Shown here piece after piece: positions 1-10,340 of a DNA stretch of 13,129 bases. Below the pieces are notes generated by a model. The model worked only from the letters and a program-made list of their open reading frames with translations, was not told the origin of the DNA and did not search any database. Source of the DNA: an uncultured Campylobacter sp. GTDB lineage: Bacteria > Campylobacterota > Campylobacteria > Campylobacterales > Campylobacteraceae. The DNA is taken from positions 1-13,129 of the forward strand of contig CAJPSJ010000022.1 of NCBI GenBank assembly GCA_905373295.1, given 5' to 3'. Each line of letters begins with the position of its first letter. Position 1 is the first letter of the stretch. The translations under genes and the position numbers were made by a program.

Positions 1-872
1 AAATTTCAAAGCCACAGGAAAAATTTAAAAAATATACTGACAATCCCAACGATTATATGGATGTTACTTTTGATTTCGAAATAGATGATAAACTTCCGTC
101 CGCGCCTGAAATCGCTAAAGAAACAAAGCAAGGCGAGTTTGAAAATAAGAATGTTAAGGATGTGCCGGAGGATAAAATTAAGACTACGGCGCAAGTAGTT
201 CCGCCACCTCCGGTGCAGGCAAAGCCGAAAGAGCCCGAAAAGCCGAAGGAAGAGCCGAAGCCGGAACCTAAAAAGGACGAGCCTAAAGCTGAGCCCAAAA
301 AAGAGGAGCCAGAGCCTAAGTTGGAAGATAAACCTTCCGAAAAAGTAGTAGAGAAAAAAGAGGAAGCTAAGCCGGAGCCGAAAAAAGAGGAAAAACCGAG
401 CTTGAGCGATCTTTTTTCGGATACGACTAAGGACAATAAGAAGCTTGAGGAGAGCGCTAAAGCTAGCGACGCCGTTCAGAGTAACAAAAAGTCCGATAAA
501 GAAACCGCCACCTCTAGTGCTAAGGATAAAGCAGCATCTAAAAATGCTGTCGTCAAATCCGATAAGCTTGGCGGCAGGACGCAAAGGACGGGTGAGTATA
601 ACGCCTATTACGGCGCTATCGAGAAAAGGCTTCAAGTTCTATGGAGTAGATATGTGGCGACCGCGAAGGACGACGCAAAGATTAAAATAGTCTTTAGTGC
701 AGATGGGCGAGTGACGGATTATACTATTATAGAGCTGGGGCGAGAGACGGAATTTAACCAGAAGTTGCGAGATTTTTTGGATAATCTATCGACTCAGACT
801 TTCCCGAAGTCTCCCGACGGAGCGTCGCACGAGATTGATACTAGAATGTCCGATGTGATGAAGACAAATTAG
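1..872 (+). CDS. tolA: TolA/TonB-like energy-transducing envelope protein, 5'-partial
   Basis: The frame is open to the left edge: complete codons run from position 3 and the methionine at 57 is internal, so the true start and the expected N-terminal membrane anchor lie outside the window. After a short N-terminal part comes a long Pro/Lys/Glu-rich linker (about 200-430, PEPKKEEP-type repeats), then a Lys/Ser/Ala-rich stretch. A folded C-terminal domain of about 93 residues follows from about 591, with LQVLWSRY, GRVTDYTIIELGRETEF and FPKSPDG. This is the layout of TolA: inner-membrane anchor, periplasm-spanning stalk, and a C-terminal domain that contacts TolB and Pal and is driven by TolQR (ExbBD-like) proton-motive force. 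The neighbours tolB, pal and cpoB favour TolA over a TonB for iron uptake. The tolQ/tolR partners should lie just upstream. The domain is copied in the next gene. Confidence 0.9.
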   Translation, partial: ISKPQEKFKKYTDNPNDYMDVTFDFEIDDKLPSAPEIAKETKQGEFENKNVKDVPEDKIKTTAQVVPPPPVQAKPKEPEKPKEEPKPEPKKDEPKAEPKKEEPEPKLEDKPSEKVVEKKEEAKPEPKKEEKPSLSDLFSDTTKDNKKLEESAKASDAVQSNKKSDKETATSSAKDKAASKNAVVKSDKLGGRTQRTGEYNAYYGAIEKRLQVLWSRYVATAKDDAKIKIVFSADGRVTDYTIIELGRETEFNQKLRDFLDNLSTQTFPKSPDGASHEIDTRMSDVMKTN

Positions 873-890
873 AATTTTGCAAGGAAAAAA

Positions 891-1286
891 GTGAAGAGAC
901 TTTTTTGTATTTTTGCGTTTTGCTGTATGCTTTTTGCGGCGGATTCGGAACAGAATTTTATTTATGAAAGAAATTCCGTTTCGCAAGAATCTGGTAAAAT
1001 TCAAATTTCAAAGGAGCTAGATGCTTATTTTTCGCAGATGGCGTCGAAATTGCAAGCTCTATGGACGAAGTATCAAGCAGGTATTTCCGATGAGGCTAGA
1101 GTCCGCATAGAATTTAGCAACAATGGACGAGTTTTAAATTATCAAATTTTAGAGCTTGGGCGTAGCACAGAATTTACCCAAAAGCTAAGAAAATTTTTAG
1201 ATGAGCTTCCTAAGCGAAGCTTTCCAAAATCACCGGATAATAAATCTCACACATTTGAAATGGTATTATCCGACGTAGCAAATTAA
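891..1286 (+). CDS. Small secreted paralogue of the TolA C-terminal domain
   Basis: This 131-residue protein starts at GTG, preceded by AAGGAA at good spacing, 18 bp after tolA. Residues 1-16 form a signal peptide (MKRLFCIFAFCCMLFA, then AD). Residues 43-131 align without gaps, until the last few residues, to the C-terminal domain of the preceding TolA; about half the positions are identical, including GRV, ELGR, TEF, QKLR, FLD and FPKSPD. There is no Pro/Lys stalk and no retained membrane anchor, so it should be a free periplasmic TolA-III-like domain. Its signal peptide closely resembles that of TolB (KKLLLILAFCSSIFAAD), and the spacers before both genes are alike, which suggests origin by tandem duplication across the tolA-tolB junction. 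A role in binding TolB or Pal, or in modulating TolA, is inference only. There is no sign of decay. Confidence 0.85.
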   Translation: MKRLFCIFAFCCMLFAADSEQNFIYERNSVSQESGKIQISKELDAYFSQMASKLQALWTKYQAGISDEARVRIEFSNNGRVLNYQILELGRSTEFTQKLRKFLDELPKRSFPKSPDNKSHTFEMVLSDVAN

Positions 1287-1301
1287 ATTTAAGGAGAAAA
1301 G

Positions 1302-2549
1302 ATGAAGAAACTACTTTTGATTCTTGCATTTTGTAGTAGCATTTTCGCGGCAGATGCGACTATGTCTATCGTAAACGAAGGGGTAAATCTCCCTAAGATC
1401 GTCGTTCAAGATGCATCAAATCTTGCAAATTCAGAATTTGGCAACAAATTCTTTAAACTTATGGTGGGCGATCTAAAGGTTGGCGCGACTTTTGAAGTCA
1501 GCGACGAGTATCTACAAAGCAGCTATGATGCGGGCGCTTCCGACAATCTAGGCTCTAGCGGTGCCGCTCTTATCGTGCGTTACGCAGTAAGTGATAAAAG
1601 CTCGCCGATGAGCCTAAAAGCCAAAGTGCTTGAGGCAAACAGCGGCAGGGTGATGTACGAGAAGAGCTTTACGCTTTCAAATGCCGAGAAATATCCATTT
1701 TTAGCCCATATGGCGGTATCTGAGATCGTCAAGCAGTTAGGCTATTCAAATGTCGATTGGATGAAGGAGATGATTTTGCTCTCTCGCTACACTTCGACGC
1801 GTGAGAGCGAGATCATGGTGGCTGACTATACGCTTACCTACCAGCAGGTGGTGCTTCGCGGCGGATTAAATATCTTCCCTAAATGGGCAAGCGCGGCGCA
1901 GAACGAATTTTATTATACCTATTACGTCAATAAAAATACGCCTGCTATCTATAAATTTAATCTATCCAACGGTAGCAAAAGTAAAATTTTTACCGGTCAT
2001 GGCATGACGATAGCTTCAGATGTAAGCGCCGACGGCAGAAAGCTTTTAATCACCAATGCGCCTAAAGATCAACCTGATATTTATTTGTATGATATAGCCT
2101 CGGGCAGCGCTAAGCAAATTACTGATTATGCTGGCATTGATGTAAATGGAAATTTTATCGACGGCGATTCGCGCGTGGCTTTTGTGAGCGATCGTTTAGG
2201 TTATCCAAACGTATTTGCCACTAGCATAAATGGCGGCAACGTTCAGCAGCTCGTGTATCACGGCAAAAACAATAACTCCATCAGCACAAATGGCAATTAC
2301 GTTACTTACTCTAGCCGCGACGGCGGGGGCGGATTTAATATATATTTAATCTCTACTCAAACCGATATGATTCGCCAGTTAACGGCTAGCGGCAAAAATA
2401 TGTTTCCTAGATTTTCTAGCGATGGCGGCAGCATTATGTTTATCAAGCAAGACGGCGGCGGAAGCTCGGTAGGTATTATCAGAGTTAACGAGAATAAAAG
2501 TTTCCAATTTCCGTTAAGAGTGGGTAAAATTCAATCGGTTGATTGGTAA
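1302..2549 (+). CDS. tolB: Tol-Pal system periplasmic protein TolB
   Basis: This 415-residue protein starts at ATG after a strong AAGGAG (1291-1296), 15 bp after the preceding gene. A signal peptide (about residues 1-17, ending IFAAD) is followed by an N-terminal alpha/beta domain to about residue 165. A WD40-like beta-propeller of repeated strand motifs comes next, for example SADGRKLLITN, DIYLYD, FVSDRLGYPNVFA and FPRFSSDGGSIMFIK. Length and layout match TolB, which links the TolA C-terminal domain to the Pal lipoprotein and peptidoglycan during outer-membrane constriction at division. The position between tolA and pal is the classical order. The propeller blades carry several Gly-rich insertions (GGGG). 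No damage is seen. Confidence 0.95.
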   Translation: MKKLLLILAFCSSIFAADATMSIVNEGVNLPKIVVQDASNLANSEFGNKFFKLMVGDLKVGATFEVSDEYLQSSYDAGASDNLGSSGAALIVRYAVSDKSSPMSLKAKVLEANSGRVMYEKSFTLSNAEKYPFLAHMAVSEIVKQLGYSNVDWMKEMILLSRYTSTRESEIMVADYTLTYQQVVLRGGLNIFPKWASAAQNEFYYTYYVNKNTPAIYKFNLSNGSKSKIFTGHGMTIASDVSADGRKLLITNAPKDQPDIYLYDIASGSAKQITDYAGIDVNGNFIDGDSRVAFVSDRLGYPNVFATSINGGNVQQLVYHGKNNNSISTNGNYVTYSSRDGGGGFNIYLISTQTDMIRQLTASGKNMFPRFSSDGGSIMFIKQDGGGSSVGIIRVNENKSFQFPLRVGKIQSVDW

Positions 2550-2604: not shown

Positions 2605-3078
2605 ATGAAACATTTAGTTTTATCTTCGATAGCAGTTGCTGCTCTATTATTGAGCGGTTGTTCTAAAAAGACCCCAGAGGCCGATACTACAAGCACAAGT
2701 GACGCAGATAGACTAGCTGCTTTGGCATCTCAGATCCAAAGTGAAGTTGGCACTGTTTATTTCGACTTTGATAAATTTAATATTAGAGCCGATCAGCAAG
2801 GCACAATCAATAATAACGCAGCTCTATTCAATCAGGCAGGCGCAGAGTCTCTAACTGTTAAAGTTGAGGGTAACTGCGATGAGTGGGGTTCTGATGAGTA
2901 CAACTATGCTCTTGGTCTAAAGAGAGCTACTGCAGCTAAAGATGCATTGGTTGCTCAAGGCGTAAATGAGAGCAGAATTTCCGTAGTAAGCTACGGCGAG
3001 AGCAATATGGCTTGCACAGAGCATTCTAAAGAGTGCGACGCTCAAAACAGACGCGACGAATTCAAAGTTGGATTCTAA
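2605..3078 (+). CDS. pal: Peptidoglycan-associated lipoprotein Pal (Omp18-like)
   Basis: This 157-residue protein has a lipoprotein signal ending LLLSGC, so Cys19 is the lipidation site. A short Ser/Thr/Asp-rich tether follows, then an OmpA-like peptidoglycan-binding domain from about residue 49: VYFDFDKFNI (51-60), GNCDEWGSDEYNYALGLKRA and a C-terminal NRRDEFKVGF. The pattern D-E-x-G-x-x-E-Y-N-x-x-L-G-x-x-R-A is the diagnostic Pal motif that binds meso-diaminopimelate. Asn-Cys replaces the His-Ala of the E. coli motif (GNCDEWG rather than GHADERG); I recall the same variant in C. jejuni Omp18. Three cysteines besides the lipidated one (91, 137, 144) could form a disulfide. AAAGGA precedes the ATG. 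It anchors the outer membrane to peptidoglycan and partners TolB. Confidence 0.95.
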   Translation: MKHLVLSSIAVAALLLSGCSKKTPEADTTSTSDADRLAALASQIQSEVGTVYFDFDKFNIRADQQGTINNNAALFNQAGAESLTVKVEGNCDEWGSDEYNYALGLKRATAAKDALVAQGVNESRISVVSYGESNMACTEHSKECDAQNRRDEFKVGF

Positions 3079-3079
3079 T

Positions 3080-3898
3080 TTGAAATTTAAAAATTTCACG
3101 GTGGCGGCTCTTTTGGGAGTCGCCACTTTTTTAAATGCAGAAACTTCCGCATTTGATGCTGGCAATATTGATTCGGGCAGCTCTTACGGGCTAACCGAAA
3201 ACGAACAAGTATTACGCGATAACCGCAAACGTATAAGCGAGATGCAAACTAGTGTAGATAATACACGCGAGAGTGTCGAAGGTTTGCGAAGCGTCCTTGA
3301 AGGAACAAATTCTAAAATTTCGAACCTGGAAAACAGGGTGGCGGATCTAGAAATTCGTACTACGGGCAAAAGCCAAGGCAACAGCGAGCTAGATCAGATG
3401 AAACGAGATATCGCAACTATAAAAGCCCAAATCGCTGAAATCAATAAAAAATTAGGTAGCGGCAGCAGCGTAAAAAAAAACGCTGAATTAGACGCAGGTG
3501 CTGCTTCAACCCCCGCTAGTACAAAATCAGACTCCGATTTTAAATTAAAAGATCAAGCATCAGTATTGAAAGAGGCTGACGCTTTATATGCCAAAAAAGA
3601 CTATTCCAGCGCAAAAGAGCGCTACAATTATTTAGTATCTAAAAATTACAAGCCGGCAAAGGCAAACTATATGCTGGGCGAAATTTCATATTTCTCCGGC
3701 TCATACGCAGAAGCGATAAACTATTATAAAAAGAGCATTTCGCACAACGAGAGCCAAGACTACACCCCAAAGCTCCTCTATCACACCGCGATCAGCTTCG
3801 ATAAGATCGGTGATAAAGACAGCGCAAATAAATTCTACAAAGCGCTAAAGGCTTCATACCCGGACTCCAAAGAAGCTAAAGCCGCGCCCACTAGATAA
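3080..3898 (+). CDS. cpoB: Cell division coordinator CpoB (YbgF) with coiled coil and TPRs
   Basis: This is a periplasmic Tol-Pal accessory protein. The frame is open from a TTG at 3068 that overlaps the end of pal by 11 bp. I prefer the TTG at 3080, because it gives a normal signal peptide (KFKNFTVAALLGVATFLNA, then ETS) and has a GGA about 7 bases upstream; with it the protein is 272 residues. A coiled coil follows (about residues 40-125, with heptad-like runs such as ISEMQTSVDNTRESVEGLRSV), then a low-complexity Ser/Ala/Thr linker. The C-terminal domain has TPR motifs (ADALYAKKDYSSAKERYNYL, LGEISYFSGSYAEAINYYKK, and a third unit to the end). This is the YbgF/CpoB layout; in E. coli the protein binds TolA and coordinates outer-membrane constriction with septal peptidoglycan synthesis. 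A non-ATG start directly after pal suggests translational coupling. Confidence 0.88.
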   Translation: MKFKNFTVAALLGVATFLNAETSAFDAGNIDSGSSYGLTENEQVLRDNRKRISEMQTSVDNTRESVEGLRSVLEGTNSKISNLENRVADLEIRTTGKSQGNSELDQMKRDIATIKAQIAEINKKLGSGSSVKKNAELDAGAASTPASTKSDSDFKLKDQASVLKEADALYAKKDYSSAKERYNYLVSKNYKPAKANYMLGEISYFSGSYAEAINYYKKSISHNESQDYTPKLLYHTAISFDKIGDKDSANKFYKALKASYPDSKEAKAAPTR

Positions 3899-6952: not shown

Positions 6953-7039
6953 AATTTTAAGCGGTTTGCGCCCCCCCTGCCAAACGAATTCAAAGCGCGC
7001 ATTTCTTGCGATAACATGAATTTCGTACATCTAGTTCGA

Positions 7040-7330
7040 TTTTTTGGCCTGAATGAGCCTGACGCACGCAGAGCAGTCATCCTCTCCTGTGCTCAAACGA
7101 GCCGCGAACCGCAGCGCGAGCAGTTGGATCACTGTGTCTAAATTGCGGTGCGGGCGATTGCGCTCTTGAGTATGAGTTGTGCACGAGCCGCAGCGAACAG
7201 TTGCCCCCGCGTCCGACTGCGCGCTAGAGTGGTGTACTTCTGCGTCCGAAGCTGTGCACGCAAGTGATTGCACTCCTACATTAAGTCGTGCGTATGAGCG
7301 ACTGTGCCCTCTGCGCCCGAGAAGCTACGA
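7040..7330. repeat. Degenerate GC-rich repeats, roughly 110-bp spacing
   Basis: Similar segments recur. CGATTGCGCTCTTG at 7154-7167 resembles TGATTGCACTCCTA at 7265-7278, and each is followed by a TGTGC/CGTGC word, GAGC and an AGTTGC or CTGTGC segment, then GCGTCCGA or GCGCCCGA. An earlier segment (about 7070-7140) shares the pattern ACGAGCCGC then GCGAGCAGTTG with ACGAGCCGC at 7183-7191 and GCGAACAGTTG at 7193-7203. The match is by eye, with several gaps, so unit length and copy number are uncertain. Confidence 0.35.
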
Positions 7331-7470
7331 GATATAGTAGGTTGTGCGTTGCTGTATCTGTTTTTGCGAAACAGCCGCGGCTACTTTCAGTGCCGTGCTT
7401 TCATCCTACTCGGGCGCTGCTCAAGCGAGCTTAACGGGTGAGCGTTATGGGCTTGCAAAGCTTGCGCGAG

Positions 7471-7546
7471 AGATGGTTTTAGAAATTTCATCTCAAAAAA
7501 TGTTTTAGAAATTTAATCCTACAAAATTTTAAAATTTTATCGGAGG
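7471..7546. repeat. AT-rich 75-bp imperfect direct repeat, copy 1
   Basis: It begins AGATGGTTTTAGAAATTT and ends with AAATTTTAAAATTT (7524-7537) plus TATCGGAGG. It aligns along its whole length, at roughly three quarters identity by eye, with 7620-7693. Its last 22 bases (7524-7545) also recur exactly at 7719-7740, giving a third, partial copy. Confidence 0.6.
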
Positions 7547-7619
7547 CTTCCTTTCGGGCTGCGGGTGCGGACTCGATCGTCGCGCGCCGTAAATTTAAAC
7601 CGCCCGCCCGCTCTGCAAA

Positions 7620-7693
7620 AGATAGTTTTAGAAATTTATTTCGGAAAATGTTTCTAAAATTTTACCTCGCAAAATTTTAAAATTTTAACGAAG
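7620..7693. repeat. AT-rich 75-bp imperfect direct repeat, copy 2
   Basis: It begins AGATAGTTTTAGAAATTT and ends with AAATTTTAAAATTT (7672-7685) plus TAACGAAG. It is about 150 bp downstream of copy 1, with GC-rich sequence between them. A partial third copy follows at 7719-7740. Confidence 0.6.
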
Positions 7694-7986
7694 CCGAATT
7701 CAAAATCCAGGCGGAGCCAAATTTTAAAATTTTATCGGAGCGAAATTCTAAAATTTCGCGCAGCCAAATTTCCGCTCTCGTTTCATAAATGTTACCTTTT
7801 GAAATTTCGCCGCTTGCGCCGGCTTAAATTTCGCGCCGCTTCAAAACTCCTCAAAACCTCCGCTGTCGCGCACGCAGATCAAATTTTAAAATTTCGCCCG
7901 CGCCGCGGTACTTCTTAAATTTACACACTACGAAATTTTAACCGATTTTCGCTCCGAAATTTATGCCGCATTAACCGCCGTGGATA

Positions 7987-7992
7987 TATAAT
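7987..7992 (+). promoter_or_regulatory. Probable -10 box for the aldehyde dehydrogenase gene
   Basis: TATAAT lies 31 bp before the ATG at 8024, followed by a short leader and a strong AAGGAG at 8013-8018. No convincing -35 is seen, as is usual for Campylobacter promoters. The gene has a long gene-free stretch upstream and its own terminator downstream, so a dedicated promoter is expected here. Confidence 0.55.
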
Positions 7993-8023
7993 AGCGAATG
8001 TCATATTTCACAAAGGAGTAAGC

Positions 8024-9503: not shown

Positions 9504-9537
9504 ATTTCGGGCGGTTTATGCCGCCCGAAATTTTATT
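9504..9537 (+). terminator. Rho-independent terminator after the aldehyde dehydrogenase gene
   Basis: A perfect 11-bp stem, ATTTCGGGCGG (9504-9514) pairing with CCGCCCGAAAT (9521-9531), has a 6-base loop TTTATG and is followed by TTTATT. It starts 14 bp after the stop of the aldehyde dehydrogenase gene. The hairpin also lies directly after the stop of the convergent lipoprotein gene, but in that direction it lacks a T run, so it acts mainly on the + strand. Confidence 0.9.
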
Positions 9538-9916
9538 CTGCCTGACTCGATTGAGTATTTAATTTTAAGATTAATATAGGCTCATCATTTGGTGGTAAAT
9601 TTTTATTTGCCAACCTTATGCCTTTATAAACATTTATCGTGATTTTAACATTTGGTATGTCGGTAACTTTTGAAAAATTATTTAAGAGCAACTTTATATC
9701 ATCATCTCTAGCGCCATAAATGTTTACTATGCTCTCATATCTATCGGTAATTTTTCCACAAGACCAAGAACCGCCTAGATGATTTAAATCTCTTATTCCT
9801 TCAAATATTATTTCTTCTGCTTTGTCGCTATACTGATTCCGACATTCCCTACCGTCGCAGCCGAATAATATAAATGCGGCGACTATCAAAAAGAAACACT
9901 TTGTAAATTTCAGCAT
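9533..9916 (-). CDS. Small lipoprotein of unknown function (paralogue 1)
   Basis: This 127-residue protein starts at the ATG ending at 9916, 7 bases after AAGGAA. Residues 1-20 are a lipoprotein signal ending AAFILFGC, so Cys20 should be lipidated. The mature part begins CDGRECRNQY and has a second conserved Cys pattern (WSCGK), which could form a disulfide, and an IPNVKITINVYKG strand near the end. The family is not known to me. The same scaffold occurs in the next gene upstream (paralogue 2): CDGxECRNxYxxKA, W-S/T-CG, then IPNVKITIxVY. It is the last gene of a four-gene minus-strand cassette with much lower GC than its flanks. Confidence 0.8.
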   Translation of the reverse strand: MLKFTKCFFLIVAAFILFGCDGRECRNQYSDKAEEIIFEGIRDLNHLGGSWSCGKITDRYESIVNIYGARDDDIKLLLNNFSKVTDIPNVKITINVYKGIRLANKNLPPNDEPILILKLNTQSSQAE

Positions 9917-9995: not shown

Positions 9996-10340
9996 CTATT
10001 TCCAATATCTCTCATAAACCGATATAGTAATTTTGACATTTGGAATTTGTGCCGCTTCTGCTATATTCTTTAATAAAGTTTCTAAATCATCGTTGCTAGG
10101 TACGTAAAAATTTATGAAGTATTCATAGTTGTCAATAGACCCGCACGTCCAATCTTTATTTTCCTTATCCTTTAAATTATCAGTTATAATAGAAAACGCC
10201 TTATTATTGTATTCGTTGCGGCATTCATTACCGTCGCAGCCGAATAGAACAATCGCAAAAAATATTGCAACAAGAAATTTTATGGCGAAATTAAAAAACC
10301 CGCCTGTTTTTATAGTTTGATAACTACGATAGCAACCCAT
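9996..10340 (-). CDS. Small lipoprotein of unknown function (paralogue 2), likely C-terminally truncated
   Basis: This protein has 114 residues. The ATG at 10340 is supported by GAGGAG (10346-10351) and has no in-frame alternative nearby. The N-terminal region before the hydrophobic stretch is unusually long (MGCYRSYQTIKTGGFFNFAIK). The hydrophobic core then ends IVLFGC, with lipidation at Cys35. The mature part matches paralogue 1: CDGNECRNEYNNKA, DWTCG, and IPNVKITISVYERYWK at the end. Paralogue 1 continues for about 25 residues beyond this point; here a TAG stops the frame, although the following 22 codons still resemble the missing tail. The protein may be non-functional or work in a shortened form. 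The upstream membrane-protein gene ends inside its Shine-Dalgarno, so the two are co-transcribed. Confidence 0.75.
   Translation of the reverse strand: MGCYRSYQTIKTGGFFNFAIKFLVAIFFAIVLFGCDGNECRNEYNNKAFSIITDNLKDKENKDWTCGSIDNYEYFINFYVPSNDDLETLLKNIAEAAQIPNVKITISVYERYWK

What the first reader, a model, noticed from the sequence alone, without database searches (positions are those of the whole stretch)
597..1361. A secreted TolA-domain gene that looks born from one tandem duplication across the tolA-tolB junction
The gene at 891-1286 joins a TolB-like signal peptide to a TolA-like C-terminal domain. By eye the first 20 residues match TolB at 11 positions, and the domain matches TolA at about 44 of 89. 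The spacers before the gene (with AAGGAAAAAA) and before tolB (with AAGGAGAAAAG) also look alike. Duplicating one segment from the tolA C-domain (597) to the end of the tolB signal peptide (950) in tandem would create exactly tolA / chimera / tolB; copy 2 spans 1017-1361, and its 9-base length difference is explained by the two-residue tail and 3-bp spacer differences. The product would be a free periplasmic TolA-III domain able to compete with or support TolA at TolB and Pal. I know of no described role for such a protein.
Basis: partly seen in the sequence, partly recalled or inferred. Interest (0 to 1): 0.72.

Follow-up and report, generated by a model that had tools for sequence, protein, structure and literature searches.

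The report
Exported TolA domain between tolA and tolB
A small Campylobacter gracilis-type gene for a free-floating copy of the TolA tip domain seems to have arisen when the tolA-tolB junction was copied in tandem; its relatives share the export signal but vary strongly in the domain, which may mean it baits whatever hijacks TolA.

Summary
ORF 891-1286 joins a tolB-like signal peptide to a TolA-III domain, in frame between tolA and tolB. The junction repeat aligns collinearly (score 64; best of 2000 shuffles 19). Among 2700 candidate starts in 800 kb of a C. gracilis-size genome, tolB's leader is the best match after the gene itself (26; next 10). One of 14 genus genomes has the gene; the other 13 have no room. 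The domain groups with C. gracilis-complex TolA (95/86), though AU tests reject no rival placement. The birth story is well supported, with adjusted breakpoints and an unexplained 16-codon linker.

New: 79 protein clusters form one family with signal peptides 86-92% alike, while domain elements share 0-65% between types A, B and C. Contig-length coincidences (8; 0.54 expected) put all three types beside tolA; one linked A, B, C trio has TolAs 97-99% identical. This looks like a hypervariable one-gene slot.

Function is inferred: a motor-less periplasmic TolA-III that titrates TolA-III ligands, most plausibly hijackers such as phage adsorption proteins or bacteriocins. A fusion fold did not support TolB docking.

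The parts
3..872 (+). tolA (5' end cut off by the window; proline-rich stalk plus C-terminal domain)
   Evidence: PF13103 TonB_2 at residues 199-278, 28.9 bits over cut-off 22; first gene of tolA-S-tolB-pal-cpoB
573..869 (+). TolA-III (C-terminal) domain of tolA: parent of the S domain
   Evidence: similarity to the S gene begins here; 49% identity over 95 aa
873..890 (+). 18-nt tolA-S spacer with presumed ribosome-binding site (GCAAGGAAAAAA)
   Evidence: aligned with the tolB leader; AATTTTGCAAGGA shared with the sister genomes' tolA-tolB spacer
891..1286 (+). S gene: TolA-III-only protein with signal peptide, 131 aa, GTG start
   Evidence: (PF13103 31.1 bits over cut-off 22)
891..944 (+). 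signal peptide derived from tolB (codons 1-18)
   Evidence: tolB is the top match of 2700 candidate starts after S itself; unchanged between window and G008; no lipobox by eye; export not tested
945..992 (+). linker of unresolved origin (codons 19-34, SEQNFIYERNSVSQES)
   Evidence: no match to tolB or tolA above shuffles; low-confidence strand at residues 23-25
993..1283 (+). TolA-III domain of S: H36-59, b67-75, b81-88, H93-108, b120-128
1287..1301 (+). 15-nt S-tolB spacer with presumed ribosome-binding site (AAGGAGAAAAG)
   Evidence: aligned with 873-890
1302..2549 (+). tolB
   Evidence: NF003124 579.5 bits, cut-off 428
1302..1355 (+). tolB signal peptide: parent of the S leader
1356..1391 (+). 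TolB N-terminus after the signal peptide (ATMSIVNEGVNL), presumed TolA-binding segment by position
   Evidence: position only; removal of the N-terminal 12 residues of TolB stops TolA-III binding in the review seen in passages (PMC7391070)
2605..3078 (+). pal
   Evidence: Pal_lipo 115.5 bits, just below its 125.35 cut-off; OmpA domain 62.6 bits over cut-off 27.2
3068..3898 (+). cpoB/ybgF-like TPR gene
   Evidence: tol_pal_ybgF E 1.5e-13, 51.3 bits, below cut-off 90.1

Best explanation
Well supported: in the C. gracilis lineage a tandem duplication across the tolA-tolB junction made a third gene, S, carrying tolB's leader and signal peptide fused to a TolA-III domain, without TolA's membrane anchor and stalk, so the product should be a free periplasmic TolA-III (export itself is inferred). 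Supported by inference: the gene is a one-copy slot between tolA and tolB whose domain is hypervariable between strains (types A, B, C and recombinants) while signal peptide, tolA and tolB stay conserved. Proposed: S is a motor-less bait. It offers the edge strands of TolA-III to ligands that use it. TolB binds TolA-III weakly and anchored TolA is energised, while known hijackers can bind more tightly, so modest amounts of S would titrate hijackers (filamentous-phage adsorption proteins, bacteriocin translocation domains) more than TolB. Rapid diversification follows because S, unlike TolA, need not keep TolB binding. Confidence: origin about 0.85, hypervariable slot about 0.65, bait role about 0.35.
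For: Origin. Presence: 14 of 14 genus genomes match S, only G008 twice. With query P0042, 86 of 153 family genomes match and only G008 twice. In 13 of 14 genus genomes TolA ends 59 nt or less before tolB or overlaps it by one base. Fold: TolA-III. Diversity: 79 clusters; mean pairwise identity A-C is 89% for the signal peptide but 4% for strand 1 and 23% for strand 3; B-C is 89% for the linker but 15-41% for helices and strands (66 of 79 clusters). Linkage: 8 exact longest-contig coincidences between 79 S and 79 TolA clusters (A 4, B 3, C 1) against a mean of 0.54 (maximum 3) over 120 shifts; only 1 S-S coincidence (chance 0.33). TolAs linked to one A (P0115), one B (P0130) and the C (P0127) are 97-99% identical. 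Fast change: 17 nonsynonymous and 7 synonymous differences between window and G008, dN/dS 0.61, against 0.03-0.10 in the eight other genes compared; Fisher against tolB (counts rounded) p 1.5e-6, against tolA p 0.003. Plausibility: TolB-TolA-III Kd 40-200 uM (PMC7391070, passages) against colicin N 1 uM (PMC4339652, passages); M13 g3p and colicin N use the TolB site. G008 carries a Zot-family gene, and a zot-bearing prophage of C. gracilis strain RM3268 is in print (PMC5025632, passages).
Against: No binding, expression or phenotype data exist. dN/dS of S does not differ from 1 (p 0.30), so relaxed constraint is possible over short times. In the fusion model the TolB N-terminus was disordered (pLDDT 32-37), so docking is unsupported. 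Zot-family genes occur in 9 of 14 genus genomes, and 8 of those 9 lack S, so exposure to such phages does not by itself predict S. Linkage of B and C to tolA rests on contig lengths, not on DNA read here; the other two B-linked TolAs (P0138, P0143) are only 84-88% identical to the A-linked ones, so part of the A/B difference may follow lineage. I saw no phage or bacteriocin of C. gracilis reported to use TolA in the listings.
Confidence: 0.4

Rival explanations
1. Tol-Pal tuner: S binds the TolB N-terminus by strand addition, so that its level sets how often anchored TolA engages TolB-Pal, tuning envelope constriction or vesicle release.
For: It lies within the tol cluster. It keeps the TolA-III fold with the third strand, the strand used by TolB in other species (PMC7391070, PMC4339652, passages). 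An engineered signal-peptide-TolAIII fusion is used to release periplasmic protein from E. coli; at the lower inducer level release was seen only with TolAIII, at the higher level also without it (PMC6195910, passages). So a free TolA-III can probably act on the envelope.
Against: TolB and TolA hardly vary (99% and 98% between window and G008) while S varies strongly; a partner of conserved TolB should be constrained. TolB docking was not seen in the fusion fold. S is absent from 13 of 14 genus genomes.
Confidence: 0.3
2. S is a paralogue under relaxed constraint, kept by chance, with little function; its variety reflects drift and gene conversion with tolA.
For: dN/dS 0.61 is not different from 1. 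Recombinants such as P0035 (B front, TolA tail) and P0074 (B front, A tail) show exchange.
Against: Open frames persist over more than one change per site between types (tree), where a decaying gene should have collected stops or shifts. The signal peptide is unchanged between window and G008 and 86-90% identical between types. Positions W58, G79, K98, F111 and P115 are invariant over 34 rows (20 S, 14 TolA). Caveat: protein databases hide broken copies; P0034 has an internal deletion.
Confidence: 0.2
3. Tandem array rather than alleles: A, B and C are co-resident paralogues that expanded by unequal crossing-over, and each genome or assembly shows a subset.
For: Shared leaders and hybrid genes fit unequal crossing-over.
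Against: G008 and the window hold a single copy. S-S contig coincidences are near chance (1 against 0.33) while S-TolA coincidences are not (8 against 0.54).
Confidence: 0.2
4. The chimera was not made by one tandem duplication: a TolA-III copy and a tolB leader were joined in separate events, or came by transfer.
For: The linker (codons 19-34) matches neither parent. AU tests do not reject S outside gracilis plus G001/G014 TolA (p 0.117; p 0.345) or outside all TolA (p 0.303).
Against: One collinear alignment runs through domain, stop, spacer and signal peptide, in place and in frame. The larger tree groups S with gracilis-complex plus G001/G014 TolA at 100/99.
Confidence: 0.12

Closest known systems
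TolA (Tol-Pal force transducer), C-terminal domain III (PF13103 here; PF06519 is Pfam's other TolA C-terminal model)
   Same: Domain III fold and sequence; same gene cluster; local paralogue
   Different: No membrane helix or stalk, own presumed cleavable signal peptide, so it cannot be coupled to the TolQR motor; strongly variable between strains
Engineered signal-peptide-TolAIII fusion (plasmid pTA3Y, ribose-binding-protein signal plus TolAIII, E. coli)
   Same: Same architecture: export signal plus lone TolA-III
   Different: Artificial and overproduced to release periplasmic proteins (PMC6195910, passages; the two primary papers were seen only in its reference list)
TonB C-terminal domain proteins, including H. 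pylori TonB-CTD
   Different: TonB rows of G008 and G014 lie on a long separate branch, though AU does not exclude S beside them (p 0.293); G008 has one separate TonB at 762 kb
Bait or receptor-mimic proteins against phages and bacteriocins (general concept, recalled)
   Same: Proposed way of working: a soluble copy of the receptor domain titrates the attacker
   Different: No such protein based on TolA-III was seen in the searches made (listings); binding untested

Membership tests
TolA-III / TonB_2 domain (PF13103) | Profile match over the curated cut-off | tested here: met
   31.1 bits against cut-off 22 for S. Most type C clusters carry no precomputed Pfam domain; P0064 and P0066 do.
TolA-III / TonB_2 domain (PF13103) | TolA-III fold | tested here: met
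TolA (full protein) | N-terminal membrane helix and stalk for coupling to TolQR | tested here: not met
   The 131-aa frame has only a tolB-like signal peptide, a 16-codon linker and the domain
TolA (full protein) | Domain III binds the TolB N-terminus | tested here: inconclusive
   Fusion fold: TolB N-terminus disordered, pLDDT 32-37; such fusions can miss weak complexes
Paralogue born by tolA-tolB tandem duplication | Collinear repeat from TolA domain through spacer to tolB signal peptide | tested here: met
   Score 64 against shuffle maximum 19; leader null
Paralogue born by tolA-tolB tandem duplication | Domain groups with local TolA | tested here: inconclusive
   95/86 with gracilis-complex TolA, 100/99 with G001/G014 added; 93/87 and 80/39 in the smaller tree; alternatives not rejected by AU
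Known anti-phage defence systems (PADLOC) | Convincing match to a catalogued model | tested here: not met
   S: PDC-M44A E 0.018; P0042: none; P0049: Cas6 E 3.8e-4, 18 bits, judged spurious because its type is related to B at E about 1e-32
Bait against TolA hijackers | Binds hijacker domains more tightly than TolB | not testable with these tools
   Needs binding assays

The most novel reading that the evidence does not exclude
The C. gracilis complex carries a hypervariable, one-gene slot between tolA and tolB encoding a soluble copy of the TolA receptor domain. The slot is under diversifying selection as a periplasmic bait that protects the Tol machine from filamentous phages or bacteriocins: an immunity strategy built by duplicating the receptor domain onto its neighbour's export signal.
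Probability: 0.28. Interest if true: 0.82.

Novelty: new variant of a known kind. Interest (0 to 1): 0.56.

Why it matters
It is a clean natural case of a new chimeric gene made in place by what looks like one junction-spanning tandem duplication. It is also nature's version of a construct that engineers built (signal peptide plus TolA-III). If the variable slot is real, it makes a concrete question testable: do bacteria evolve soluble copies of a receptor domain to decoy hijackers of a motor they cannot afford to change? It would also give a natural probe of how much free TolA-III a Tol-Pal system tolerates.

Tried and rejected
Set aside: a TonB or unrelated origin of the domain (TonB rows lie on a long separate branch, but AU could not exclude S with TonB, p 0.293, or outside all TolA, p 0.303). 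A lipoprotein: no lipobox by eye. The idea that the S linker is a retained TolB TolA-binding segment: no DNA match above shuffles. TolB docking by a fusion fold: negative. Self-pairing of strand 23-25 with strand 3: only a low-confidence hint, no coordinates available, and reduced to a single residue in the fusion model. A phage-borne copy: viral-contig scans with P0042 and P0049 found no relative; S itself was not scanned there. Defence catalogue: nothing convincing. No RNA family or tRNA in the window. No terminator-like site between 550 and 1450 (0.8 expected) and two promoter-like sites on the minus strand (1.6 expected). PDB sequence search: only weak TonB rows (E 0.49-0.73) below unrelated ones. 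Passages of PMC13367063 and PMC10666116 held nothing on a small TolA gene. Rows left out: TonB_G001 (miscut) from both trees; also the other TonB rows, S_P0018 and the recombinants P0035 and P0074, and the root was set on TolA_G015, 13 of 79 clusters that lack the first residues. Types A, B, C were assigned by eye from the alignment. (PF13103, 397 class genomes, 373 with a match) printed only its best matches, so it cannot say whether small TolA-III genes arose elsewhere. In one search, 67 of 153 genomes gave no match at all, so absence there is untested.
Full report
What is there. The window is from a Campylobacter close to C. gracilis: TolB is 99% identical to that of G008, an unnamed 2.28-Mb genome, and two named database entries for close relatives of S (P0024, P0027) are C. 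gracilis. That G008 is a C. gracilis genome is my inference from its size (P0027's longest contig is 2,281,730 bases, G008's contig 2,281,652). The order is tolA (5' cut), S (891-1286), tolB, pal and a cpoB-like gene, all on the plus strand; tolA, S and tolB share one frame.

Check of the observation. S aligns with the window's own TolA domain at 49% over 95 residues and with the TolB signal peptide (10 of 18 residues). A local DNA alignment runs from the second half of the TolA domain (687) through its stop, the spacer and the S signal peptide, against the S domain (1107), its stop, the spacer and the tolB signal peptide. It scores 64; 2000 codon-block shuffles reach at most 19 and 226 other stretches of the window at most 15. 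The first half of the domain aligns only as protein. The weak link was whether signal peptides look alike anyway. Scoring the 76-nt start region of S against 2700 candidate starts (189 signal-peptide-like) in 800 kb of G008, G008's own S scores 66, its tolB 26 and the next 10. The tolB starts of G001 and G014 also score 26 and share AATTTTGCAAGGA with the S spacer; those of the 11 other genus genomes score from -3 to 22.

Breakpoints. Base by base, tolB similarity is 31 of 45, then 20 of 45, then 10 of 45, so it stops near codon 18-19. TolA similarity starts at about 573/993 (13 of 30 bases, against 4 of 30 just before). The linker between them is at chance against both.

Distribution. With S as query, 14 of 14 genus genomes match, but only G008 has two matches. 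Reading the interval in those 14, 13 have TolA ending 59 nt or less before tolB or overlapping it by one base. With P0042 as query, 86 of 153 family genomes match and only G008 twice; 67 gave no match and are untested. G008 also has one TonB at 762 kb.

Tree. In the first tree S is one clade (89/87) beside gracilis TolA (93/87), and G001/G014 join them with only 80/39. With 11 more TolA rows from metagenomes and no TonB, gracilis-complex TolA is one clade (98/95), S is one clade (92/85), the two are together (95/86), and adding G001/G014 gives 100/99. AU tests do not reject TolA of gracilis plus G001/G014 excluding S (p 0.117; p 0.345), S outside all TolA (p 0.303) or S with TonB (p 0.293). 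The domain is short; I lean on place, collinearity and leader as much as on the tree.

Family. Two database searches give 79 clusters; every row with an organism name says Campylobacter. By eye they fall into A (like S), B and C. Over 66 clusters with full N-termini, mean pairwise signal-peptide identity is 86-92% in all comparisons, while A-C strand 1 is 4%, A-B helix 1 is 41%, and B-C linker is 89% but B-C strands are 15-31%. The linker of A shares only 12-14% with B and C. Hybrids exist: P0035 (B front, TolA tail), P0074 (B front, A tail), P0022 (A with a B-like leader). TolA domains of the same lineage found by the third search are 82-99% identical to the window's (79 clusters at E <= 1e-10).

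Slot or array. DNA of B and C was not available. As a proxy, exact coincidences of the longest-contig length between S and TolA clusters were counted: 8 (A 4, B 3, C 1) against a mean of 0.54 and maximum 3 over 120 shifts; above 2 kb, 7 against 0.33; for S-S pairs 1 against 0.33. So all three types probably sit near tolA (a 2452-bp contig for C), and co-residence of types looks rare. TolAs so linked to A (P0115), B (P0130) and C (P0127) are 97-99% identical in full; the other two B-linked TolAs (P0138, P0143) are 84-88% identical to the A-linked ones. So the slot varies within a tight lineage in at least one trio, and between lineages too. This is inference, not read DNA.

Rates. Between window and G008, S has 17 nonsynonymous and 7 synonymous changes (dN/dS 0.61), tolB 5.5 and 41.5 (0.03), tolA 0.09, pal 0.04; the signal peptide has none. 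S differs from tolB at p 1.5e-6 and from tolA at p 0.003, but its own ratio is not different from 1 (p 0.30).

Mechanism. Papers seen in passages: TolB and M13 g3p add a strand at strand 3 of TolA-III; TolB binding is weak, 40-200 uM; purified TolA-III does not bind Pal (PMC7391070). Colicin N binds the same site at 1 uM (PMC4339652). A signal-peptide-TolAIII fusion is used to release periplasmic protein from E. coli (PMC6195910). From these I infer a window of concentration in which a free TolA-III titrates tight hijackers and spares TolB. One C. gracilis strain is in print as carrying a zot-bearing prophage (PMC5025632, passages), and G008 has a Zot-family gene, but so do 9 of 14 genus genomes, G008 included, so exposure alone does not explain S. 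That Zot-family proteins are pI-like assembly ATPases of filamentous phages is recalled; the word filamentous does not occur in that paper.

Novelty. A 2025 paper on TolA/TonB evolution has no occurrence of Campylobacter or of the phrase between tolA and tolB in its main text (PMC12204202, passages). Searches of the open library (listings only apart from the papers named) showed no such gene. Subscription journals are largely not covered.

Verdict. The function is open. The strongest new lead is the conserved-leader, variable-domain slot beside a conserved tolA.

Noticed in passing
window 9533-9916 and 9996-10340, minus strand: Two adjacent small putative lipoproteins (FGCDG[RN]ECRN motif) are clear paralogues of each other (local score 222), with no convincing Pfam match and no PADLOC match: a second tandem duplication in the window.
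   Followed up: partly
window 573-869 and TolA clusters P0127, P0130, P0138: TolA's own domain varies between strains in the first two strands (IKIVFSADGRVADYTIIELG against ISITFGADGRVVDYKIIELG); the second form resembles S type B, which hints at exchange between tolA and S.
   Followed up: partly
P0115, P0127, P0130: TolA stalk carries an alternative segment (DLFGGI-DMKKVEQ for DLFSDTTKDNKKLEE) shared by TolAs linked to S types A, C and B.
   Followed up: no
P0073 and P0065: A type B and a type C cluster have the same longest contig length (1001 bp); could be a tandem pair or chance (0.33 expected).
   Followed up: no
window 6953-8023: About 1 kb without a plus-strand ORF of 60 aa or more between the ttcA-like gene and an aldehyde dehydrogenase-like gene (names by eye); no tRNA or Rfam match.
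   Followed up: no
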